From Actinomycetota bacterium (GTDB lineage: Bacteria > Actinomycetota > Thermoleophilia > Solirubrobacterales > 70-9): 32,146 bases of DNA. Under the pieces are notes generated by a model, which was not told the DNA's origin, made no database searches, and saw only the letters and a list, made by a program, of their open reading frames with translations. This document shows positions 21,357-28,936 of this stretch, piece by piece. Location of the stretch: positions 1-32,146 of the forward strand of contig JAUPTY010000007.1 of the NCBI GenBank assembly GCA_030917845.1, given 5' to 3'. How positions within the stretch are numbered: the first letter of the stretch is position 1; the number at the start of each line of letters is the position of its first letter. The translations under genes and the position numbers were made by a program.

Positions 21357-22532
21357 TCAGAGCCGGAATCGGAAGCGCCTGAAGCCGGCGAAGGCGCCGG
21401 CTTCGGCGAGTCCGCCGAGGCCGAGCAGGGCGCCGATTCCGATCACGGTCAGTGCCCCGTCGGAGATGCCTCCACCACCGCCCGAATCCCCTGCTTCTTC
21501 CGTCGGCTGGGAGTCGGTCGCGGGCGCATCAGCCGGGGGTGCGATCGCGGTGATCTGACTCGGGTCGATCAGCTGGCCGCTTACCGTGTCGAGGCCGTCG
21601 TCGACCGGCTGCTGCGGTTCCTTGTCCTTCGGCTGTTGAGGCGTCGGATTGCCGGTTGAGGGGCTGCCCGATCCACCGCTGGTCCCGCCGCCATAGCCGC
21701 CATACCCGCCGTCGGAGTAGCCGGGGATGTATCCGCCCGAGTTGCCCGTACCGCCGGTACTGTCGGTGTTCTCCGGCTTCTTGTTTTTCGGCTTCTTCTT
21801 CTCCACCTTGCCGACCGTGATCGTGGCGAAGGCATCATCACCGCGCTGGCCCTGGGCAGTCGCATCGACCACGACCACGAACTGTTCGTCGTCCCCCGTG
21901 AACTTGTGGGTGACGGTCTTGCTCCCGGAGTTGTCGGTTTGGCCATCTCCGAAGTCCCAGTCGTAGCTCACGCTGCCAGTGGCGCCAGTGACCGTTGCCG
22001 TGAAGGTGACCGAATCCCCGCTCTCGATCCGCTTGCTGGCGGGCGACAGGGTGACTTTCAGTTCCTGGGCCTGCGAAATGTAGATCTCCGGGTTGAAGGC
22101 CTTGTAACGGACCTTCCTGGTTTGCCCGTTTTTCCGGAACCTCATTTCCGTGTAGTCAGCCGTAGAGGTGAAGAGTGGGCAGGCAGCCGACTCTGCGCGC
22201 ACCTGGTCACCGGTACATGAGACCGAATTGACCGACCCCGGCAGGGCGACTGAAACGCCAGGAACAGTGTCCAGGTTGAACTGGCCGGAGCGCGGATCAG
22301 CGTCCTGGAGAATGTCGCGGACCGTGTAGGTGGTCGCTCCGTCGTCGGTCGGTGCGATGTCTGCCAGTTGGACGTTGACCGGGTCGGTGCTCCAGCCATA
22401 ACCGTTTACTTCGACCACGCCTTCCTGAAAGAAACCGGCTTTCGACTGCGGCGCCGTGGCGGCGAACAAAACGAGCAATGCGGCGAGCCCGATCCCGAGC
22501 GCTAGCGGTCTCTTGCCGGCCAAGACCGCCAT
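21357..22532 (-). CDS. PKD-domain surface protein with C-terminal membrane anchor
   Basis: 391 aa. A Sec signal peptide ends near residue 32 (APQSKAGFF). Residues 35-155 are a beta-rich region with two cysteines (SVSCTG, SAACPLF) that I do not recognise. A PKD domain covers about 158-245, with the hallmark YDWDFGDGQ. A Lys-rich stretch and a Gly/Tyr/Ser/Pro linker follow (GYGGYGGGTSGGSG). The C-terminus is a hydrophobic helix (about 358-382) ending in a basic tail (RRFRFRL), so the protein should be anchored in the cytoplasmic membrane and reach outwards. Its ATG overlaps the stop of the HtaA gene upstream by one base, so it is the last gene of that operon. It may be the anchored receptor or tether of the heme system. 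Its convergent neighbour ends 24 bases away. Confidence 0.75.
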   Translation of the reverse strand: MAVLAGKRPLALGIGLAALLVLFAATAPQSKAGFFQEGVVEVNGYGWSTDPVNVQLADIAPTDDGATTYTVRDILQDADPRSGQFNLDTVPGVSVALPGSVNSVSCTGDQVRAESAACPLFTSTADYTEMRFRKNGQTRKVRYKAFNPEIYISQAQELKVTLSPASKRIESGDSVTFTATVTGATGSVSYDWDFGDGQTDNSGSKTVTHKFTGDDEQFVVVVDATAQGQRGDDAFATITVGKVEKKKPKNKKPENTDSTGGTGNSGGYIPGYSDGGYGGYGGGTSGGSGSPSTGNPTPQQPKDKEPQQPVDDGLDTVSGQLIDPSQITAIAPPADAPATDSQPTEEAGDSGGGGGISDGALTVIGIGALLGLGGLAEAGAFAGFRRFRFRL

Positions 22533-23845
22533 CAGACGCCGGTGGCGAAGGTGTAGCTGACCGAGAAGAATCCGAAGCGGTCGGGACGCGGGTCCTGGCC
22601 GTCGAAATCAGGGCTGTAGGCCGGGTAGAAGTCGGCGAAGATGCCGGTCGCCTCGGCTGGGATGAATCCGGGGATCTTCACCCAGTTGACGGTTGTGGTC
22701 CCGTTGTCATTGCCGTTTACCCTGTGCGATTCAGCCTGGCTCGGCAGCAGCTTGACCATTACCGCGCGCTGATCCGGGAAAGCCGTTCCGTCGGTGCCGT
22801 TCACATGGAAGATCAAACGCGAGTTGGTGTCGCCATCAATTTCGATCTCGGGGTCGGAGGTCGTGAAGTTGATGGTGTTCCGGCAGTACTGGAACCCGAC
22901 CTTGCCGCTGCCCTTGATCAAGGTGTTCTCGGGCGAGTCGAGAGATTCCGGGACAGTCCAACCCGAGCTGAACGGAAAGTTGAAGGAATAGACGAGGTTC
23001 TTGGCGCCGGAGGGCGGGTCGGCGGTTGCGCCGTCCCCGACTGTGGTGCCCAGCCCGGAGGCCACGTAGTCAATGAAGCTGTCCCGGACGTACCACTTGA
23101 TGGTTGCCGTCGACTGAATCGGTTTGGCTCCAGCCGGCTGCGGCTTGACCGCAGGCTCATCGGGGGTCTCCCCGGTCGGGTCCTTCACCGGGGTCACTTT
23201 GTAAAGCGAGTAGAGATTGAGGTAGCCCCAGACGGTGCCCGCCCTCAGCTTGTTGCGGCGGATGCCGAGCCTGCGGTTGAGGATCTTCGCTCCGCGGGCG
23301 GTGAGGCGGGCGTAACCGACCCGCGAAAGTTCACCGGTCTTCGCGTCGAACGCGCGACGACCACCCTTGACCGTGAAGAAGTTGACCTTTCCGGTTCCGG
23401 CCGAGCCACGCAGGTAGGCTGGTTTGCCCGCCACGCTGATGGCCTGCAGCCCTGTCAGTGAAACTGATCGCTTCTTCCGGACTATCCGCAGCCCGCCCTT
23501 CAGGTCAATGGAGGGCGTGCCTTTGTATCTGACGGCTTTGACTGGGAATGTGGGCCGGCCAGTCAGCTGATTGGCCGGCTTGATCAGTTTCTGACGAACC
23601 CCGCTGCGCTTCCAGGCGACCCGGGTGGCCCTCACAGGGGCGAGGGTTGCCTGACCTTCGAGTTCGATGATCGGCCCGGTCGGGTTGGTTGATTCGCAGG
23701 GCTCGAGCGTCGCCGCTCCCGCCGGCGCCGGTCCTGCCCCCTGGCCGACGATTACCGCAAGCAGAACGGCGACGAGGGCGAACCCCGAAAGGGCCGCCCT
23801 CGTCGATGCCGAATGAACGGCAATGCTTGTGCCGCTCGGCTTCAG
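22532..23845 (-). CDS. HtaA-domain heme-binding secreted protein, second copy (CTG start)
   Basis: About 437 aa if read from the CTG at 23845. From the first ATG/GTG/TTG in frame (GTG at 23635) it would lack any export signal. The extra 70 codons encode a clear signal peptide (ALSGFALVAVLLAVIVGQG, cleavage near AGAAT). GGAGG lies 6 bases before the CTG, and the upstream gene stops at 23848, so translation is probably coupled. Domains: an N-terminal beta domain (about 50-195) related to that of the preceding gene (GGLRIVRKKRSVSL), a Pro/Thr linker, then an HtaA domain (about 240-370) with ATIKWYVRDSFIDYV and TSDPEIEIDGD. In corynebacteria HtaA domains bind heme through a conserved tyrosine; the Tyr in DSFIDYV is kept. 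There is no membrane anchor. Confidence 0.75.
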   Translation of the reverse strand: MKPSGTSIAVHSASTRAALSGFALVAVLLAVIVGQGAGPAPAGAATLEPCESTNPTGPIIELEGQATLAPVRATRVAWKRSGVRQKLIKPANQLTGRPTFPVKAVRYKGTPSIDLKGGLRIVRKKRSVSLTGLQAISVAGKPAYLRGSAGTGKVNFFTVKGGRRAFDAKTGELSRVGYARLTARGAKILNRRLGIRRNKLRAGTVWGYLNLYSLYKVTPVKDPTGETPDEPAVKPQPAGAKPIQSTATIKWYVRDSFIDYVASGLGTTVGDGATADPPSGAKNLVYSFNFPFSSGWTVPESLDSPENTLIKGSGKVGFQYCRNTINFTTSDPEIEIDGDTNSRLIFHVNGTDGTAFPDQRAVMVKLLPSQAESHRVNGNDNGTTTVNWVKIPGFIPAEATGIFADFYPAYSPDFDGQDPRPDRFGFFSVSYTFATGV

Positions 23846-23847
23846 GT

Positions 23848-25080
23848 TCAGCCTCCGACCGTCACCGTGATCGGGTCAAGTGTCGTGCCGGCGGGATAGG
23901 TAGCAAACGGGGCCGCGCTTTCACTAAGCGAAGCCGGGATGTCCGTGTAGGTGATTCCCGCTTCGCTTTCAACCGGGGTGATCGCTGCCAGATCGAGGTC
24001 GGCAAGGTCAACGCGCTGCGGCGTCTGCCAGGGGCCGAGTTCGCCGAACATGCCGTTGCCGTTGATGTTCTGGCTGATCGTGGCGACGATCCGTGAATTC
24101 ACACCGTCGATGACGATGGTCGGATCGCTGATCGATGCCCAGAAGGAATGCTCCGAATTGCAGAACAGGGCAGTTCCGGTCCCGTTGATCACGGCCTGGT
24201 CGTCAGCAGCACCGGCGCCGTTGGCAGCATGCTGGCCACCGGACACGGGAAATGCGAAGCCGCGGGTCGGATCGAACGGCGGGAAGGTGCGGGTCGCTCC
24301 ATCAAGCGGCTGGAGAGCCTGGTCGGCCTTGCCGCCCGCGGTCATCGTCCCGTAGACATAGCCGCGGAAGCTGGCCCTGAAGCCCCAATTGAAGCTTGTC
24401 GGGGCAGTGGTCGCCGTGGGAGAACCCAAGGTCGGGAGCGCGGATGCTTCCGGCCAGGAGTTCAGTGCCCTCGAGGAAACGGGGACGCCGCACTGCTCGG
24501 TGTACTGGTCAGAGAAGGTCGTCTTGACATTGACGTAGAGTCCGCCGATTCGCCCGGTCGGGGACTTCTTCAGCTTCAGCGAGTTGCGCAGCTTTCCGGC
24601 TGCAGCCTTGGTGAAGGAGAGCTTCCCACCGGAGAGCCTGGCCAGCCCGTTCGCGGTTTCCAGTGTGGAAGTACCGAAAGCGTTGAAGACGTTCATCTTC
24701 TTTCCGCCGAGCTTGCCACTGATTACGGCGCGCTTTCCGTAGACGGCGACGTTGAGAGAGGTAATCGTGACCTTGCGCTTGCCGTTGGCGAAGCGGATCC
24801 CGCCCGCAACCCTGGCGCTGGCCTTCGTGTCGAAGGTGCCCTCGGAGACGGTGCTGGTCACTTTGGCGCCCTTCTTTCCGATGCGCTTGGCGAGTTTGGC
24901 CGGCTTTACGGCCGAGACCATGCCGGCCTTGCCTGAGGGAATGGTGATGGCCACGTTCCCCGTGGTCACGTCAGCAGCGCTGGCAGACCCCTGATTGAAA
25001 CCAGCGATGAAAAGGAAAGCCACGGCGAAGGCAGTGAGGGCTGCCGGAATGCGGCGACGGGCGAAGAGGGGTGAACTCAT
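23848..25080 (-). CDS. HtaA-domain heme-binding secreted protein, first copy
   Basis: 410 aa. A Sec signal peptide ends near residue 35 (GFNQGSASAAD). The N-terminal beta domain (about 45-195) includes ARVAGGIRFANGKRKVTI and aligns with the same part of the next gene product. The HtaA domain (about 225-370) has the family opening FNWGFRASFRGYV, a Gly-rich middle and the closing strand EHSFWASISDPTIVIDG. The Tyr in SFRGYV is the likely heme ligand, and the His in SEHSFW falls near the position of a conserved His in corynebacterial HtaA. No anchor is seen. The ATG has AAGGAG 11 bases upstream. It heads an operon of three genes behind two IdeR-like boxes and follows the importer gene hmuV. It probably captures heme outside the membrane and passes it to the importer. 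Confidence 0.85.
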   Translation of the reverse strand: MSSPLFARRRIPAALTAFAVAFLFIAGFNQGSASAADVTTGNVAITIPSGKAGMVSAVKPAKLAKRIGKKGAKVTSTVSEGTFDTKASARVAGGIRFANGKRKVTITSLNVAVYGKRAVISGKLGGKKMNVFNAFGTSTLETANGLARLSGGKLSFTKAAAGKLRNSLKLKKSPTGRIGGLYVNVKTTFSDQYTEQCGVPVSSRALNSWPEASALPTLGSPTATTAPTSFNWGFRASFRGYVYGTMTAGGKADQALQPLDGATRTFPPFDPTRGFAFPVSGGQHAANGAGAADDQAVINGTGTALFCNSEHSFWASISDPTIVIDGVNSRIVATISQNINGNGMFGELGPWQTPQRVDLADLDLAAITPVESEAGITYTDIPASLSESAAPFATYPAGTTLDPITVTVGG

Positions 25081-25117
25081 GTGTGGTGATTCTCCTTGAG
25101 AAGAGGGAAATAGGGAG

Positions 25118-25136
25118 TTAGGTCTGCCTTAGAAAT
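25118..25136. promoter_or_regulatory. IdeR/DtxR-like box, proximal to the HtaA operon
   Basis: TTAGGTCTGCCTTAGAAAT agrees at 12 of 19 positions with the DtxR/IdeR consensus, including the whole left half. It lies 38 bases before the first HtaA start, where a bound repressor would block transcription under iron sufficiency. Confidence 0.55.
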
Positions 25137-25151
25137 TCAGACTAACACGAT

Positions 25152-25170
25152 TGGTATTAGCCTTGCCTAA
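25152..25170. promoter_or_regulatory. IdeR/DtxR-like box, distal to the HtaA operon
   Basis: The core TTAGCCTTGCCTAA (25157-25170) sits in a 19-base site matching the DtxR/IdeR consensus at 13 positions. It overlaps the hmuV stop codon (25167-25169), so the promoter of the HtaA operon begins inside the end of hmuV. Confidence 0.55.
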
Positions 25171-25985
25171 TGGCGTTCGAGCCACTCGACATGGAGCGCC
25201 GACCGGCCCTCTTTCTGTACGAGTTCCGCTTCGACATCCCATACTTCACTGATCAACTGACTCGTTAACACCGCTTCCGGGGTCCCAGTTGCGATTGTCC
25301 TTCCGTGAGACATGACCACAACCCGGTCAGCGATCGCCGCGGCCAGGGCGAGGTCATGCACGATCAGGACGACACCCATGCCGTCGGCGACCAGTTCTCG
25401 CAGCATTTTCGAGATCGAAGCGGTGGCTCCGAGGTCGAGCTGGGCGGTTGGCTCGTCGGCGATCAGGACCGGCGCGCCCTGAGCAAGGGCGATCGCGATC
25501 TGGACCCGCTGCATCTCGCCACCGGAGAGGGTGCTGAGATCGCGATCCTCGAATCCTTCCATCTTCGCCCGGGCAATCGACTGGGCCACCACCTCCCGGT
25601 CCGCTGCCGTCAATCCCTGCAGTGGCTTGAGATGAGTGGAGCGGCCGATCCGGACGGCCGACTCGACCGTGACCCCATTGGGGACCTGTGCACTCTGGGG
25701 TACGTATGCCCGAACGTCGGCAAGACGTCGGCCCCTGAGCGATGCCAGGGGAACACCCTTCCATTCGACCCTTCCCCCCTCTGGACGCCGCAGACCGCAG
25801 AAGGCACGGGCGAAGGTTGACTTGCCGGCTCCGTTCGGACCGACCACGGCGACCAGCTCGCCGCGCTCGAGCGTCAGGCTGGCCGATTCGAGGATCACCT
25901 CACCGGCGATTTCCACACGGACATCCCGCGCGTCCAGCAGGGGCGCTTCGGGATCGAATTCTGCGGGGTTCCTGCCGAAGGCCAT
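25167..25985 (-). CDS. hmuV: Heme/iron ABC transporter ATPase
   Basis: 272 aa. Walker A GPNGAGKST, Q-loop YVPQSA, ABC signature LSGGEMQRV, Walker B VLIADEP with the D-loop QLD, and the switch His in IVHD are all intact, so it should be active. The family is the FecE/BtuD/HmuV type that energises FecCD permeases. Its ATG overlaps the permease stop by one base. The substrate (heme rather than siderophore or cobalamin) is inferred from the HtaA and HugZ genes on either side; the ATPase itself does not show it. The C-terminus carries a 35-residue extension after the core, also seen in many HmuV proteins. Confidence 0.88.
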   Translation of the reverse strand: MAFGRNPAEFDPEAPLLDARDVRVEIAGEVILESASLTLERGELVAVVGPNGAGKSTFARAFCGLRRPEGGRVEWKGVPLASLRGRRLADVRAYVPQSAQVPNGVTVESAVRIGRSTHLKPLQGLTAADREVVAQSIARAKMEGFEDRDLSTLSGGEMQRVQIAIALAQGAPVLIADEPTAQLDLGATASISKMLRELVADGMGVVLIVHDLALAAAIADRVVVMSHGRTIATGTPEAVLTSQLISEVWDVEAELVQKEGRSALHVEWLERH

Positions 25986-26974
25986 CAGACCGCCTTCCTT
26001 AGGAGCCAGAGGAAAAGCGGAACCCCGAGCAGGACAAGGAACGGCCCGACCGGCAGTTCCTGCGGGGCGGCGATGGTCCGGGCCAGGGTGTCACCCGCGG
26101 TGAGCAGCGCCGCTCCGGCCAGGGCCGAGACCGGCATGACGAAGACATGGCTCTTGGTGCCACCGAGCAGGCGAACCAGATGGGGGATCACCAGTCCGAG
26201 GAAAGCGAGCAGGCCGGCGATCGCGGCGGCCGCCGAAGCGAGGATCGCGGCGGCCAGTGCGGCAACCAGTCGGATCAACCGGGGCCGGGAACCGAGTGAA
26301 GCGGCAACGTCATCGCCCAGCATCAACTTGTCGAGCGGGCGGATCATGAAGGCAGCCAGCACGAAACCGACCGCGAAGTAGGGCCAGATCGTCTCCATGT
26401 TCTCCCAGCCGGTGGAGGTCAGACCGCCGACCAGAAAGAAGACCGCGTTGGGCACCCGGTCCGGGTAGGCGGACATCAGGCCAGCGGTGGCGGCCGAGAA
26501 GAGAGCGGCGATCGCGATGCCGGCAAGGATCACCCGGGTGATGTTGCCGCCGCCCCGACCAGTGAATCCGATCAGGAAGACCATGCCAGCGGCGATCAGT
26601 CCGAAGGCCAGTGCGCTGATCGGCAGCAAGGCAACGCTGGCCGGGTTGAGAATGATGATCAGCATCGCGCCGAAGCCGGCGCCGCCGGTCACTCCGATCA
26701 CGTCGGGTGACGCCAGGGGGTTGTTCAGTGCGCCCTGAAGACAGGCTCCGGCCACGCCGAGTGCCGCACCAACCACGATCGCCTCCACCGTGCGGGGCAG
26801 GCGCAAAACTTCGATGATCTGCTTGCTGGTCTCCGGGACGCTGTCACCGAAGAAGGTGCCGAAGACGTCGCTGAGCGGGATCTCAACCGCGCCGAAGGCC
26901 AGCGAGGCGCAGATCGCGGCTACAAGTGCGACCAGCATTCCTGCGGCTACAGCTACGGGCCTGACGGAAGTCAG
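25985..26974 (-). CDS. hmuU: Heme/iron ABC transporter permease (FecCD family)
   Basis: About 329 aa from a CTG at 26974, or 317 aa from the ATG at 26938. The ATG has AGGA touching it, too close to serve, and it falls inside the first membrane helix. The CTG has GGGGGA 5 bases upstream and adds a basic residue before the helix (TSVRPVAVAAGMLVALV). No other ATG, GTG or TTG lies between the in-frame stop and 26938. FecCD hallmarks: about nine or ten helices, EAIVVGAALGVAGACLQGAL, NPLASPDVIGVTGGAGFGA, and the coupling loop near GLVIPHLVRLLGG. It should form a homodimer with HmuV below and HmuT above. A hairpin lies between hmuT and this gene. Confidence 0.85.
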   Translation of the reverse strand: MTSVRPVAVAAGMLVALVAAICASLAFGAVEIPLSDVFGTFFGDSVPETSKQIIEVLRLPRTVEAIVVGAALGVAGACLQGALNNPLASPDVIGVTGGAGFGAMLIIILNPASVALLPISALAFGLIAAGMVFLIGFTGRGGGNITRVILAGIAIAALFSAATAGLMSAYPDRVPNAVFFLVGGLTSTGWENMETIWPYFAVGFVLAAFMIRPLDKLMLGDDVAASLGSRPRLIRLVAALAAAILASAAAAIAGLLAFLGLVIPHLVRLLGGTKSHVFVMPVSALAGAALLTAGDTLARTIAAPQELPVGPFLVLLGVPLFLWLLRKAV

Positions 26975-26999
26975 AGCGTTCCCCCAGGTTCGAGGTCAG

Positions 27000-27016
27000 G
27001 ACCGGAAGGTCCGGTC
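27000..27016 (-). other. Small hairpin between hmuT and hmuU
   Basis: GACCGG/CCGGTC arms (27000-27005, 27011-27016) with a 5-base loop lie just after the hmuT stop, without a U run. Such structures often protect the upstream message and give more binding protein than permease. Confidence 0.5.
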
Positions 27017-27018
27017 GC

Positions 27019-27921
27019 TCACCAGTTCTTCAGCCAATCCGACCGAATCTTGCCAATTATCTGGCCGACATCCGTACCAGCCTGGAGCAACTCGTTGTCA
27101 GTCGAGACGAACACCTTGCCGTTCTTGACCGCATTGGTGGTCTGCCAGGCCTCGTTATTCATGATGTACTCGGCGACCTCGCTGAGGTCGTCCGCGTTGC
27201 CGTGAGGCACGGCGACAATGACGTCCGGATTCTCGGCGACCACGACTTCGTCAGAAAGACGGGCGAAGCCGCCCGTGTTGCTGGCGCCGCCGGTGACCAG
27301 GTTGCCACCCGCCTTCGTGACCAGCTCACCGCCCCAGGAGTTCCCGAGGAATGCCATCGCGGTGTTGCCGATGCCGAGCACGACAAGTACGCGCGGCCGC
27401 TTCGTGATGTTCCGGGTCGCGATTCTGATGCGATTGCGGATGCTGTTGTTGACCCGGGCTGCGCGTCGACCCTTGCCAATGAATCGGGCGACTTTCTTGA
27501 CGCCCGCGTAGACCTGATTGATGTTCAGCGGATCAGTATTTACGACGGTGATACCCAGACGGCGCATCGCCTGGGAGCCCCGCGCCCATCGGCTGGAGCT
27601 GAAGACCACGTCAGGCCGGAGCTTCGCCATTACTTCGAGATTGGGACCGTTCGGGTGGCTCAGCTTCAGCACCGGCACTCCCCTGAGGGCCGCGGGCTTG
27701 CGTCGCTCGCCACCGATGGTCTGTCCGATCGCGATCGGCTTCACACCGATCTTGACCATTGCAGCCGCAGCGAAGGGGCTGATTGCCACGACGCGCTTCT
27801 GTTTAGCCGCTTCCGCCTGGGGCGAAACTAGGGCCACGAGCATGAACGCGGCCGCAAGGACCATCACCACCCGGGAAATCAGGCTTGTTCGGGGCGTGAG
27901 GCTGGTTGCGGCGTCAGACAT
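27019..27921 (-). CDS. hmuT: Heme/iron ABC transporter substrate-binding protein (no lipobox)
   Basis: 300 aa, the size of FecB/BtuF/HmuT-type class III binding proteins. A Sec signal peptide ends near residue 39 (VSPQAEAAKQKRVV). The two lobes start with KRVVAISPFAAAAMVKIGVK and RPRVLVVLGIGNTAMAFLG, joined by a long helix (about 135-165), as in the family; MAKLRPDVVFSSS and AENPDVIVAVPHGNADD are the usual substrate-side strands. The mature protein contains no cysteine at all, so it cannot be a lipoprotein, unlike HmuT of corynebacteria. ATG at 27921 has AAGGAG 11 bases upstream. It is the first gene of hmuTUV and is divergent from the HugZ-type gene. Confidence 0.82.
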   Translation of the reverse strand: MSDAATSLTPRTSLISRVVMVLAAAFMLVALVSPQAEAAKQKRVVAISPFAAAAMVKIGVKPIAIGQTIGGERRKPAALRGVPVLKLSHPNGPNLEVMAKLRPDVVFSSSRWARGSQAMRRLGITVVNTDPLNINQVYAGVKKVARFIGKGRRAARVNNSIRNRIRIATRNITKRPRVLVVLGIGNTAMAFLGNSWGGELVTKAGGNLVTGGASNTGGFARLSDEVVVAENPDVIVAVPHGNADDLSEVAEYIMNNEAWQTTNAVKNGKVFVSTDNELLQAGTDVGQIIGKIRSDWLKNW

Positions 27922-28087
27922 TGAGGGTTGGGCTCCTTCGAGGGGTAGGCAAGTAACCTTGGAACACGGCGCGGAGGCAAAGGTCGTGGACCTGCCGAAA
28001 TCCCGGCGCTTGAGTAGGAATAGGGTAGCCTAACTCCTCTTTCTCGTCCCTGACTTCTCCCCTAACTGAATCGAAAGCGAGCCAACG
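27922..28087. promoter_or_regulatory. Divergent hmuT / HugZ control region
   Basis: 166 bases between the two starts. The clear element is the IdeR-like box at 28020-28038; a weaker half-site (TAGGCAAGTAACC) lies near 27945-27957, closer to hmuT. An in-frame TGA at 28067-28069 fixes the HugZ start downstream of it. One shared site would let iron control uptake and heme breakdown together. Confidence 0.5.
28020..28038. promoter_or_regulatory. IdeR/DtxR-like box between hmuT and the HugZ gene
   Basis: A site with the core TAGCCTAAC matches the DtxR/IdeR consensus at 13 of 19 positions. It lies 50 bases before the HugZ-type GTG and about 100 bases from the hmuT start. Confidence 0.6.
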
Positions 28088-28936
28088 GTGTCGACCGAGA
28101 CCAAGCAGAATCGTGAACTCAAGGCAGTTGTCGGCGCCCACGATGTGGCCCCCGGCGCCGAGATCCCCGATGTCGCCCCGATCGCTTTCGGTGGAGTCCG
28201 GCGGAGCGCCGCAGAGGAGTCACGGACGATTCTCGCCAACGCCACGCACGGAACTCTCGGTTCGCTGAGCGACGATGGCACCCCCTGGGCCTCGCTTGTC
28301 ACATTCGGTGTGATGGATGACGGCAGCCCGGTCTTCTGCCTCTCCACCCTTGCCGAACATGCGCGCAACCTGGAGAAGAACCGCCAGGCCTCGCTGATGG
28401 TCATCGACCCTTTCCACACCGGCGAAGTCCTGGCCGGTGGCCGGGTCACCCTGGCCGGAAAGGTCAAGCGCTCCGATGAGCACCCCGACGAGGCTTCGGC
28501 CCGAGCCGCCCACCTCGAGGCAGTTCCCTCGGCCGCGATGTACGCGGACTTCAATGACTTTTCCTTCTGGATCCTCGAAGTCGACCGGGTGCGCTGGGTA
28601 GGTGGATACGGTCGCATGGACTCGGCCTCATCCGAGGAATACAGCGCCGCCGAACCGGATCCGGTCCAGCCTCAGGTTCCGGACGCGGTCGCTCACCTGA
28701 ACGCCGACCACCCGGACGCCCTGCTGATCATGGCCAGGGCATTTTCGAAGTACAGCGACGCCACCGAGGCGAAGTGCACCCGAGCCGACCGCTACGGGCT
28801 CGATCTCCAGGTCGAGACCCCGGAAGGCGAGAAGGCGACCCGGGTCAGCTTCACCGACCGGATCGACAAGCCGGGCGGCCTCCGCGCGGCCACGGTTGAC
28901 CTGGCCCGCCGCTCCCGCGAGAAGCTCGACTCCTAG
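28088..28936 (+). CDS. HugZ-type heme-degrading protein (PNPOx-like fold plus DUF2470)
   Basis: 282 aa, GTG start; an in-frame TGA 21 bases upstream rules out an earlier one. A split-barrel flavin-reductase-like (pyridoxamine phosphate oxidase) domain covers about 38-170: TLGSLSDDGTPWASLVTFGV, a FCLSTLAEHARNL strand-helix and the WVGGYGRM end. DUF2470 covers about 190-275, with the signature HLNADHPDALLIMAR, as in HugZ and HutZ. These proteins cleave heme to release iron in the cytoplasm. The position next to the importer and behind an IdeR-like box supports that role here. The ribosome binding site is weak. It ends in a 4-base tail-to-tail overlap with the peroxidase gene (CTAG). Confidence 0.85.
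   Translation: MSTETKQNRELKAVVGAHDVAPGAEIPDVAPIAFGGVRRSAAEESRTILANATHGTLGSLSDDGTPWASLVTFGVMDDGSPVFCLSTLAEHARNLEKNRQASLMVIDPFHTGEVLAGGRVTLAGKVKRSDEHPDEASARAAHLEAVPSAAMYADFNDFSFWILEVDRVRWVGGYGRMDSASSEEYSAAEPDPVQPQVPDAVAHLNADHPDALLIMARAFSKYSDATEAKCTRADRYGLDLQVETPEGEKATRVSFTDRIDKPGGLRAATVDLARRSREKLDS

What the first reader, a model, noticed from the sequence alone, without database searches (positions are those of the whole stretch)
21357..28936. Complete HtaA-type heme acquisition and breakdown locus with a PKD-domain membrane-anchored partner
Two HtaA-domain secreted proteins, an anchored PKD protein, hmuTUV and a HugZ-type enzyme lie together with IdeR-like boxes. Corynebacterial Hta systems use HtaA proteins that carry their own C-terminal membrane helix. 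Here neither HtaA protein has one, and the only anchored protein is the PKD protein, whose N-terminal domain is unrecognised. This suggests a divided receptor: soluble heme catchers plus a separate anchor.
Basis: partly seen in the sequence, partly recalled or inferred. Interest (0 to 1): 0.72.

Follow-up and report, generated by a model that had tools for sequence, protein, structure and literature searches.

The report
Heme-uptake locus with motor-linked anchor protein
An uncultured actinobacterium carries a heme-uptake gene cluster whose only membrane-anchored surface protein appears to be the partner of an unlinked ExbB-type proton-channel pair, suggesting that heme capture is energised even without an outer membrane.

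Summary
A Solirubrobacterales MAG carries a hmuT-hmuU-hmuV-htaA1-htaA2-PKD gene run with a divergent HugZ-like gene. Neither HtaA protein, nor HmuT, has a membrane anchor or lipobox. The PKD protein has a signal peptide, a C-terminal helix and a basic tail.

But "passive anchor" is probably not the whole story. The N-terminal domain (AlphaFold pLDDT about 90, weakly PruR-like) occurs in 25 of 232 Solirubrobacterales genomes. All 25 also encode DUF2149, which sits beside an ExbB/TolQ-type gene. In seven genomes from four families, hmuTUV, HtaA, this anchored protein, ExbB and DUF2149 share one locus. In the window's genus the ExbB-DUF2149 pair is unlinked. The best-conserved part of the PKD protein is the transmembrane helix, with an invariant Leu-Gly-Glu pattern. 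Similar helices end the proteins encoded immediately upstream of ExbB elsewhere in the order.

Best model: soluble HtaA hemophores, HmuTUV importer, and a PKD-anchored subunit coupled to an ExbB/DUF2149 proton channel. Coupling and heme binding are inferred, not shown. No ExbD was found in the family, no TonB-dependent receptor in the genus.

The parts
21357..22532 (-). PKD protein, 391 aa: signal peptide, N-domain (about 33-152), PKD domain (158-236), Pro/Gly-rich linker, VxGxL motif (317-321), C-terminal TM helix (about 360-379) with invariant L369, G373, E377, basic tail
22532..23845 (-). htaA2: secreted protein with a C-terminal HtaA/CR domain; probable CTG start at 23845-23843, 6 nt after GGAGG (another CTG at 23851 overlaps the htaA1 stop)
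23848..25080 (-). htaA1: secreted protein with a C-terminal HtaA/CR domain, no TM helix
25167..25985 (-). hmuV: ATPase of a FecCD-type (heme/siderophore class) importer
25985..26938 (-). hmuU: FecCD permease
27019..27921 (-). hmuT: substrate-binding protein, nearest solved relatives Lmo2184 and IsdE; no lipobox
28088..28936 (+). HugZ-like heme-binding protein (DUF2470), nearest solved relative MSMEG_6519 (5bnc, 9e-77)
28020..28033 (.). IdeR/DtxR-like palindrome ATAGGGTAGCCTAA in the divergent hmuT-hugZ promoter region, conserved in the genus
25118..25131 (.). second, weaker IdeR-like site TTAGGTCTGCCTTA upstream of htaA1; another candidate at 25156-25170

Best explanation
This is a probably iron-regulated heme (or other iron-tetrapyrrole) uptake locus. 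HtaA1 and HtaA2 are released hemophore-like CR-domain proteins that take up heme outside the membrane and pass it to unanchored HmuT and then HmuUV; the HugZ-like protein handles heme inside. The PKD protein is held in the membrane by its C-terminal helix, and that helix docks into an ExbB/DUF2149 proton channel (DUF2149 standing in for ExbD) encoded elsewhere in the genome. It would act like a TonB turned round: globular domains at the N terminus, Pro/Gly-rich linker, membrane helix at the C terminus. Proton flow would move or re-orient the ectodomain, gathering the soluble HtaA/HmuT proteins at the importer or driving heme release from tightly binding HtaA proteins. Shown by sequence: gene content, synteny, domains, absence of anchors, co-occurrence and co-localisation with ExbB/DUF2149, conserved helix. 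Inferred: heme as substrate, physical partnership with ExbB/DUF2149, energy coupling, hand-over step.
For: PKD gene beside htaA2 in 14/14 genus operons. N-domain in 25/232 order genomes, all 25 with DUF2149 (64/232 background; 24 by HMM, G231 by motif); genus-level Fisher 3.6e-5. Outside the genus all 10 N-domain genes lie within 7 kb of DUF2149; seven loci in four families hold hmuTUV, HtaA, N-domain protein, ExbB and DUF2149 together. G204: HmuT-U-V-HtaA-ABM-anchor-ExbB-DUF2149 on one strand (one S4-like ORF between); ABM proteins of G204 and G230 are PF03992, and the G230 one matches MhuD/HmoB/IsdG heme-degrading enzymes. Proteins immediately upstream of ExbB mostly end in a C-terminal helix, in this order mostly with a G-x-x-E-like end; the PKD protein ends the same way and ExbB has no such upstream partner in the window's genus. 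TM core is the most conserved part (56% mean pairwise identity against 30-33% in the ectodomains; L369, G373, E377 invariant in 17/17). DUF2149 carries Asp or Glu at the start of its helix in all 39 sequences; ExbB is PF01618 with conserved GTL and TVxG motifs. CR heme residues kept. In Bacteroidota heme operons ExbB and DUF2149 follow a membrane protein of unclear function.
Against: In the window's genus the ExbB-DUF2149 pair is unlinked, so the partnership there rests on co-occurrence. G004 (74% complete) has DUF2149 but no N-domain protein. ExbB-DUF2149 also sits with other anchored proteins and with tungstate-type ABC genes, so it is not heme-specific. No TonB-dependent receptor for a TonB-like arm to act on. 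No unbiased control set for the GxxE helix end could be assembled. The N-domain has no conserved His/Tyr ligand, and its fold match is weak (E 0.3-0.4). No experiment.
Confidence: 0.55

Rival explanations
1. Passive scaffold: the PKD protein only tethers soluble HtaA1/HtaA2 (and perhaps HmuT) near HmuUV through its ectodomain. ExbB/DUF2149 co-occurs because both belong to the same kind of iron-uptake gene set, without contact.
For: Only anchored protein of the locus, operon order, no lipobox on HmuT; PKD domains commonly mediate protein or wall contacts (general knowledge).
Against: The ectodomain is poorly conserved (30-33%) while the helix with a Glu at its end is the best conserved part; the N-domain protein also occurs with ExbB/DUF2149 where no HtaA is nearby (L170, L173, L174).
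Confidence: 0.25
2. The anchored protein is the cell-surface receptor itself: the N-domain binds heme or another ligand directly and ExbB/DUF2149 drives ligand release to HmuT; HtaA is auxiliary.
For: Predicted fold of the N-domain is nearest to PruR pterin-binding proteins (TM 0.53-0.59); N-domain proteins occur in genomes without an HtaA match (G068, G230, G231).
Against: Fold match is statistically weak; no invariant heme-ligand residue in the domain; HtaA is the domain with the known heme pocket.
Confidence: 0.12
3. The substrate is not heme but another iron complex or tetrapyrrole (for example cobalamin-like); the HtaA domains have been recruited for it.
For: hmuT/U/V hit several siderophore and B12 families below the equivalog cut-offs; the helper His position is not kept in HtaA2.
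Against: Axial Tyr, propionate Ser and Tyr are conserved in both HtaA proteins; HtaA2 mostly has a Tyr-Cys pair as in ChtA; HugZ-like or MhuD/IsdG-like neighbour in most loci.
Confidence: 0.08

Closest known systems
Corynebacterium diphtheriae HtaA/HtaB/ChtA-HmuTUV hemin uptake system
   Same: CR (HtaA) domains feeding an HmuTUV importer, metal-regulator-like boxes, axial Tyr residues kept
   Different: C. diphtheriae CR proteins each carry a C-terminal helix (PMC12494546); here both HtaA proteins and HmuT are unanchored and a PKD protein carries the only anchor; the papers read here describe no ExbB/DUF2149 component there
Bacteroidota hmuYRSTUV operon
   Same: Membrane protein of unclear role (HmuT) followed by ExbB-like HmuU and DUF2149 HmuV in an iron-regulated heme operon (PMC10434189, PMC12583661, PMC13227078)
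   Different: Diderm with TonB-dependent receptor HmuR and CobN-like HmuS; no HtaA and no ABC importer in that operon; homology of Bacteroidota HmuT to the PKD protein was not tested
TonB-ExbB-ExbD energy transduction complex
   Same: ExbB-family channel, small partner with an acidic residue at the helix (DUF2149), third protein with long Pro/Gly linker and a membrane helix
   Different: TM helix is C-terminal rather than N-terminal; no ExbD family member (family) and no TonB-dependent receptor (genus) found; no sequence homology to TonB shown
Isd heme system of Gram-positive bacteria
   Same: Division between surface capture, IsdE-like binding protein and importer; MhuD/IsdG-like enzymes in relatives
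   Different: Capture domain is HtaA/CR, not NEAT; no sortase motif noticed (not searched systematically)

Membership tests
HtaA (CR-domain) protein family | PF04213 domain over the curated cut-off | tested here: met
   47 and 83 bits against cut-off 24; HtaA1 profile matches solved CR domains 9o0k 1e-13, 8smu 1.5e-8
HtaA (CR-domain) protein family | Axial Tyr with Ser four residues before it, and propionate Tyr near the C terminus | tested here: met
   HtaA1 Y241, Y395 and HtaA2 Y259, Y406 invariant in the genus; Ser at i-4 kept in nearly all (residue roles from PMC12494546)
HtaA (CR-domain) protein family | Measured heme binding | not testable with these tools
   needs purified protein
Corynebacterial Hta uptake system | CR proteins carry their own C-terminal membrane helix | tested here: not met
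   no hydrophobic segment after residue 60 in HtaA1/HtaA2
HmuTUV heme ABC importer | SBP, FecCD permease and ATPase encoded together | tested here: met
HmuTUV heme ABC importer | Equivalog-level match to a heme SBP or ATPase model | tested here: not met
   best IsdE 96 of 298 bits; heme ATPase PRK13548 219.5 of 261 bits
HugZ heme oxygenase | Match over the HugZ equivalog cut-off (TIGR04109) | tested here: not met
   52.8 of 240 bits; family-level resemblance only, nearest solved protein MSMEG_6519
Ton system | ExbB/TolQ-family channel | tested here: met
   PF01618 31 bits over cut-off 22.9 in the window's genome, on another contig
Ton system | ExbD family protein | tested here: not met
   PF02472 in 0 of 50 family genomes; DUF2149 is encoded in its usual place
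Ton system | TonB-dependent outer-membrane receptor | tested here: not met
   PF07715 plug in 0 of 18 genus genomes, 1 of 50 in the family
Ton system | TonB C-terminal domain protein | not tested
   PF03544 not searched
PruR-type pterin-binding proteins (N-domain) | Significant fold match | tested here: inconclusive
   7kou TM 0.59/0.55, probability 0.82, but E 0.43

The most novel reading that the evidence does not exclude
Monoderm actinobacteria use a proton-driven ExbB/DUF2149 motor with an interchangeable, C-terminally anchored 'inverted TonB' protein to energise surface steps of ABC importers: heme with HtaA hemophores here, apparently tungstate-type and other substrates in relatives, with the transmembrane G-x-x-E end as the docking signature.
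Probability: 0.38. Interest if true: 0.85.

Novelty: new variant of a known kind. Interest (0 to 1): 0.64.

Why it matters
Ton-like parts in monoderms, Actinobacteria among them, have been called likely non-functional (PMC12204202), and DUF2149 and its upstream membrane partner have no assigned role even in the well-studied Bacteroidota heme operon (PMC12583661, PMC13227078). Here the same channel pair repeatedly shares loci with hmuTUV, HtaA and an anchored partner in an order of Gram-positive bacteria, with no ExbD found in the family and no TonB-dependent receptor in the genus. That makes the role of these parts directly testable by gene deletion and point mutation, and would explain how unanchored hemophores and an unanchored binding protein can serve an importer without an outer membrane.

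Tried and rejected
Sequence profile of the N-domain against PDB: only chance-level hits. Foldseek with the two-domain model: immunoglobulin-like hits dominate, uninformative for the N-domain; the single-domain model gave the weak PruR match. NCBIfam hits of the PKD protein (polycystin, PamR) reflect the PKD domain only. TIGR03771 'anchored repeat ABC' was considered because of the name and rejected: one of many generic ATPase hits, far below cut-off (130.6 of 268.8). A classical Ton system with an outer membrane was considered and not supported. A control set of other C-terminally anchored proteins for the GxxE motif was attempted but too few such proteins were present, so no specificity figure is given. 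Literature searches for HtaA with PKD domains, and for Solirubrobacter with ExbB, found no paper describing this arrangement. No tRNA in the window.
Full report
Source. The window is contig C99 of a 2.04-Mb, 76% complete MAG. Named relatives with the same locus are Solirubrobacterales bacteria (67-14, HKST-UBA63 to 68 and others), class Thermoleophilia.

Observation. Gene order on the minus strand is hmuT (27019-27921), hmuU, hmuV, htaA1 (23848-25080), htaA2 (22532-about 23845), PKD gene (21357-22532); a HugZ-like gene diverges at 28088. The stop of htaA2 and the ATG of the PKD gene overlap by one base, and htaA2 begins at the htaA1 stop, so the last three genes look translationally coupled. 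Hydropathy confirms that HtaA1 and HtaA2 have only a signal segment, and that the PKD protein has a C-terminal helix with a basic tail. HmuT lacks a lipobox in 13 of 13 relatives and, by eye, in the window, so no other extracytoplasmic component of the locus is tethered. A 14-bp IdeR-like palindrome is conserved in the hmuT-hugZ gap.

Is HtaA still a heme protein? The known CR-domain structures use an axial Tyr, a Ser four residues earlier and a Tyr near the C terminus for a propionate (PMC12494546). These are kept in HtaA1 and HtaA2 across the genus, the Ser with few exceptions; the profile of HtaA1 matches solved CR domains. HtaA2 mostly has a Tyr-Cys pair where ChtA has helper Tyr178 and Cys179, although three sequences have Phe and one His. 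HtaA1 mostly keeps a nearby CNxxH. A Cys before the domain (C197 in HtaA1; C49 in HtaA2) and the loop Cys (C307; C320) are invariant, a possible disulfide. Heme binding is therefore likely, not shown.

Searching 50 family genomes, the PKD protein is found directly downstream of htaA2 in every genus genome that has the operon: 14 of 14, counting the window and G010, where htaA1 lies on another contig. G005 has the PKD gene at a contig edge. G004 has large two-HtaA proteins (about 1,100 aa) and no PKD homologue. G003 and G017 have none of these genes. The refutation condition is thus not met.

Beyond HtaA. In genus g9 the PKD-type gene follows hmuTUV and is itself followed by an ExbB/TolQ gene (PF01618) and a DUF2149 gene. 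A profile of the N-domain finds 25 of 232 order genomes; DUF2149 occurs in 64 of 232, and in all 25 of these, G231 being found by motif rather than by the HMM. By genus the overlap is 7 of 7 against 15 of 54 (Fisher 3.6e-5; genera are not fully independent). Outside the window's genus, all ten N-domain genes are within 7 kb of DUF2149. Seven genomes from four families (G036, G038, G050, G053, G054, G081, G204) have hmuTUV, HtaA, the anchored protein, ExbB and DUF2149 in one place. G204 has them in one run, with an ABM-family protein and one S4-like ORF in between. G230 has ABM, anchored protein, ExbB and DUF2149 in a row, and its ABM protein matches MhuD, HmoB and IsdG enzymes. In the window's genus the pair is elsewhere, near metH (window genome C20, L098 7100-8214). 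Across the phylum DUF2149 is rare: 10 of 396 over cut-off.

The helix. In alignment A1 the ectodomains are 30-33% identical pairwise, the TM core 56% with no gaps; V317, G319, L321, L369, G373 and E377 are invariant in 17 of 17. Proteins encoded immediately upstream of ExbB, with quite different ectodomains, mostly end in a C-terminal helix, in this order mostly closing with a G-x-x-E-like end. In the window's genus ExbB has no such upstream partner, leaving the PKD protein as the candidate. This is suggestive, but a proper control set was not available. DUF2149 has NLF[DE] at the start of its helix, reminiscent of ExbD (a recalled resemblance, not tested). ExbD itself is absent from all 50 family genomes, and plug domains from the genus.

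The N-domain. AlphaFold2 gives pLDDT 88 for the window N-domain plus PKD domain, and 91 (pTM 0.87) for the domain of a relative. The best TM-scores in PDB are PruR pterin-binding proteins (0.53-0.59, E 0.3-0.4), so the fold call is tentative.

Mechanism. The parts fit a heme-uptake system in which soluble HtaA proteins and HmuT are served by an anchored protein coupled to a proton channel. In Bacteroidota, an iron-regulated heme operon also holds a membrane protein of unclear role, ExbB and DUF2149. One study calls incomplete Ton systems in monoderms likely non-functional (PMC12204202); the conserved co-localisation seen here argues against that for this clade. What the proton flow would do is inference: re-orienting the ectodomain, concentrating HtaA/HmuT at HmuUV, or releasing tightly bound heme. 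That these bacteria are monoderm is general knowledge, not tested here beyond the absence of receptors.

Membership. The HtaA proteins are members of the CR family by every feature testable here. The system is not a Corynebacterium-type Hta system, because the anchor is divided off, and not a Ton system, because no ExbD was found in the family and no receptor in the genus. It may work like the latter. The HugZ-like and Hmu proteins fall below equivalog cut-offs, so those names are family-level.

Noticed in passing
window 23843-23856 (-): htaA2 has no ATG, GTG or TTG before its signal peptide; CTG codons at 23851 and 23845 follow GGAGG and overlap or adjoin the htaA1 stop. L062, L066 and L067 also have CTG there, while L059 and L061 have ATG at the same junction: a possible conserved CTG start.
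   Followed up: partly
L101, L102, L178, L179, L202 (G036:C67, G040:C91, G214:C416, G118:C177, G122:C530): ExbB-DUF2149 pairs beside tungstate-type ABC permease genes, some with a TupA-like binding protein, others with a PKD protein ending in the same kind of helix: the channel pair is not restricted to heme loci. The tungstate assignment is by eye.
   Followed up: partly
L107, L204: ExbB/DUF2149 preceded by anchored proteins, the L107 one with prenyltransferase-like toroid repeats; substrate unknown.
   Followed up: no
L175 7050-8309, L176 364-1707: Second, paralogous N-domain anchored protein in G001 and G008, next to a sucC-like gene and without its own ExbB.
   Followed up: no
L073, L074 (G004:C5, C14): Genus member G004 lacks the PKD gene and the usual HtaA pair but has two proteins of about 1,100-1,160 aa with two HtaA domains each.
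   Followed up: no
G019:C183:6972-7304: A lone TonB-dependent receptor plug-domain match in one family genome, possibly contamination.
   Followed up: no
L171 3316-4473: HtaA-domain protein with a collagen-like repeat stretch inside the heme locus of G081; extra secreted proteins also lie next to HugZ in L167-L169.
   Followed up: no
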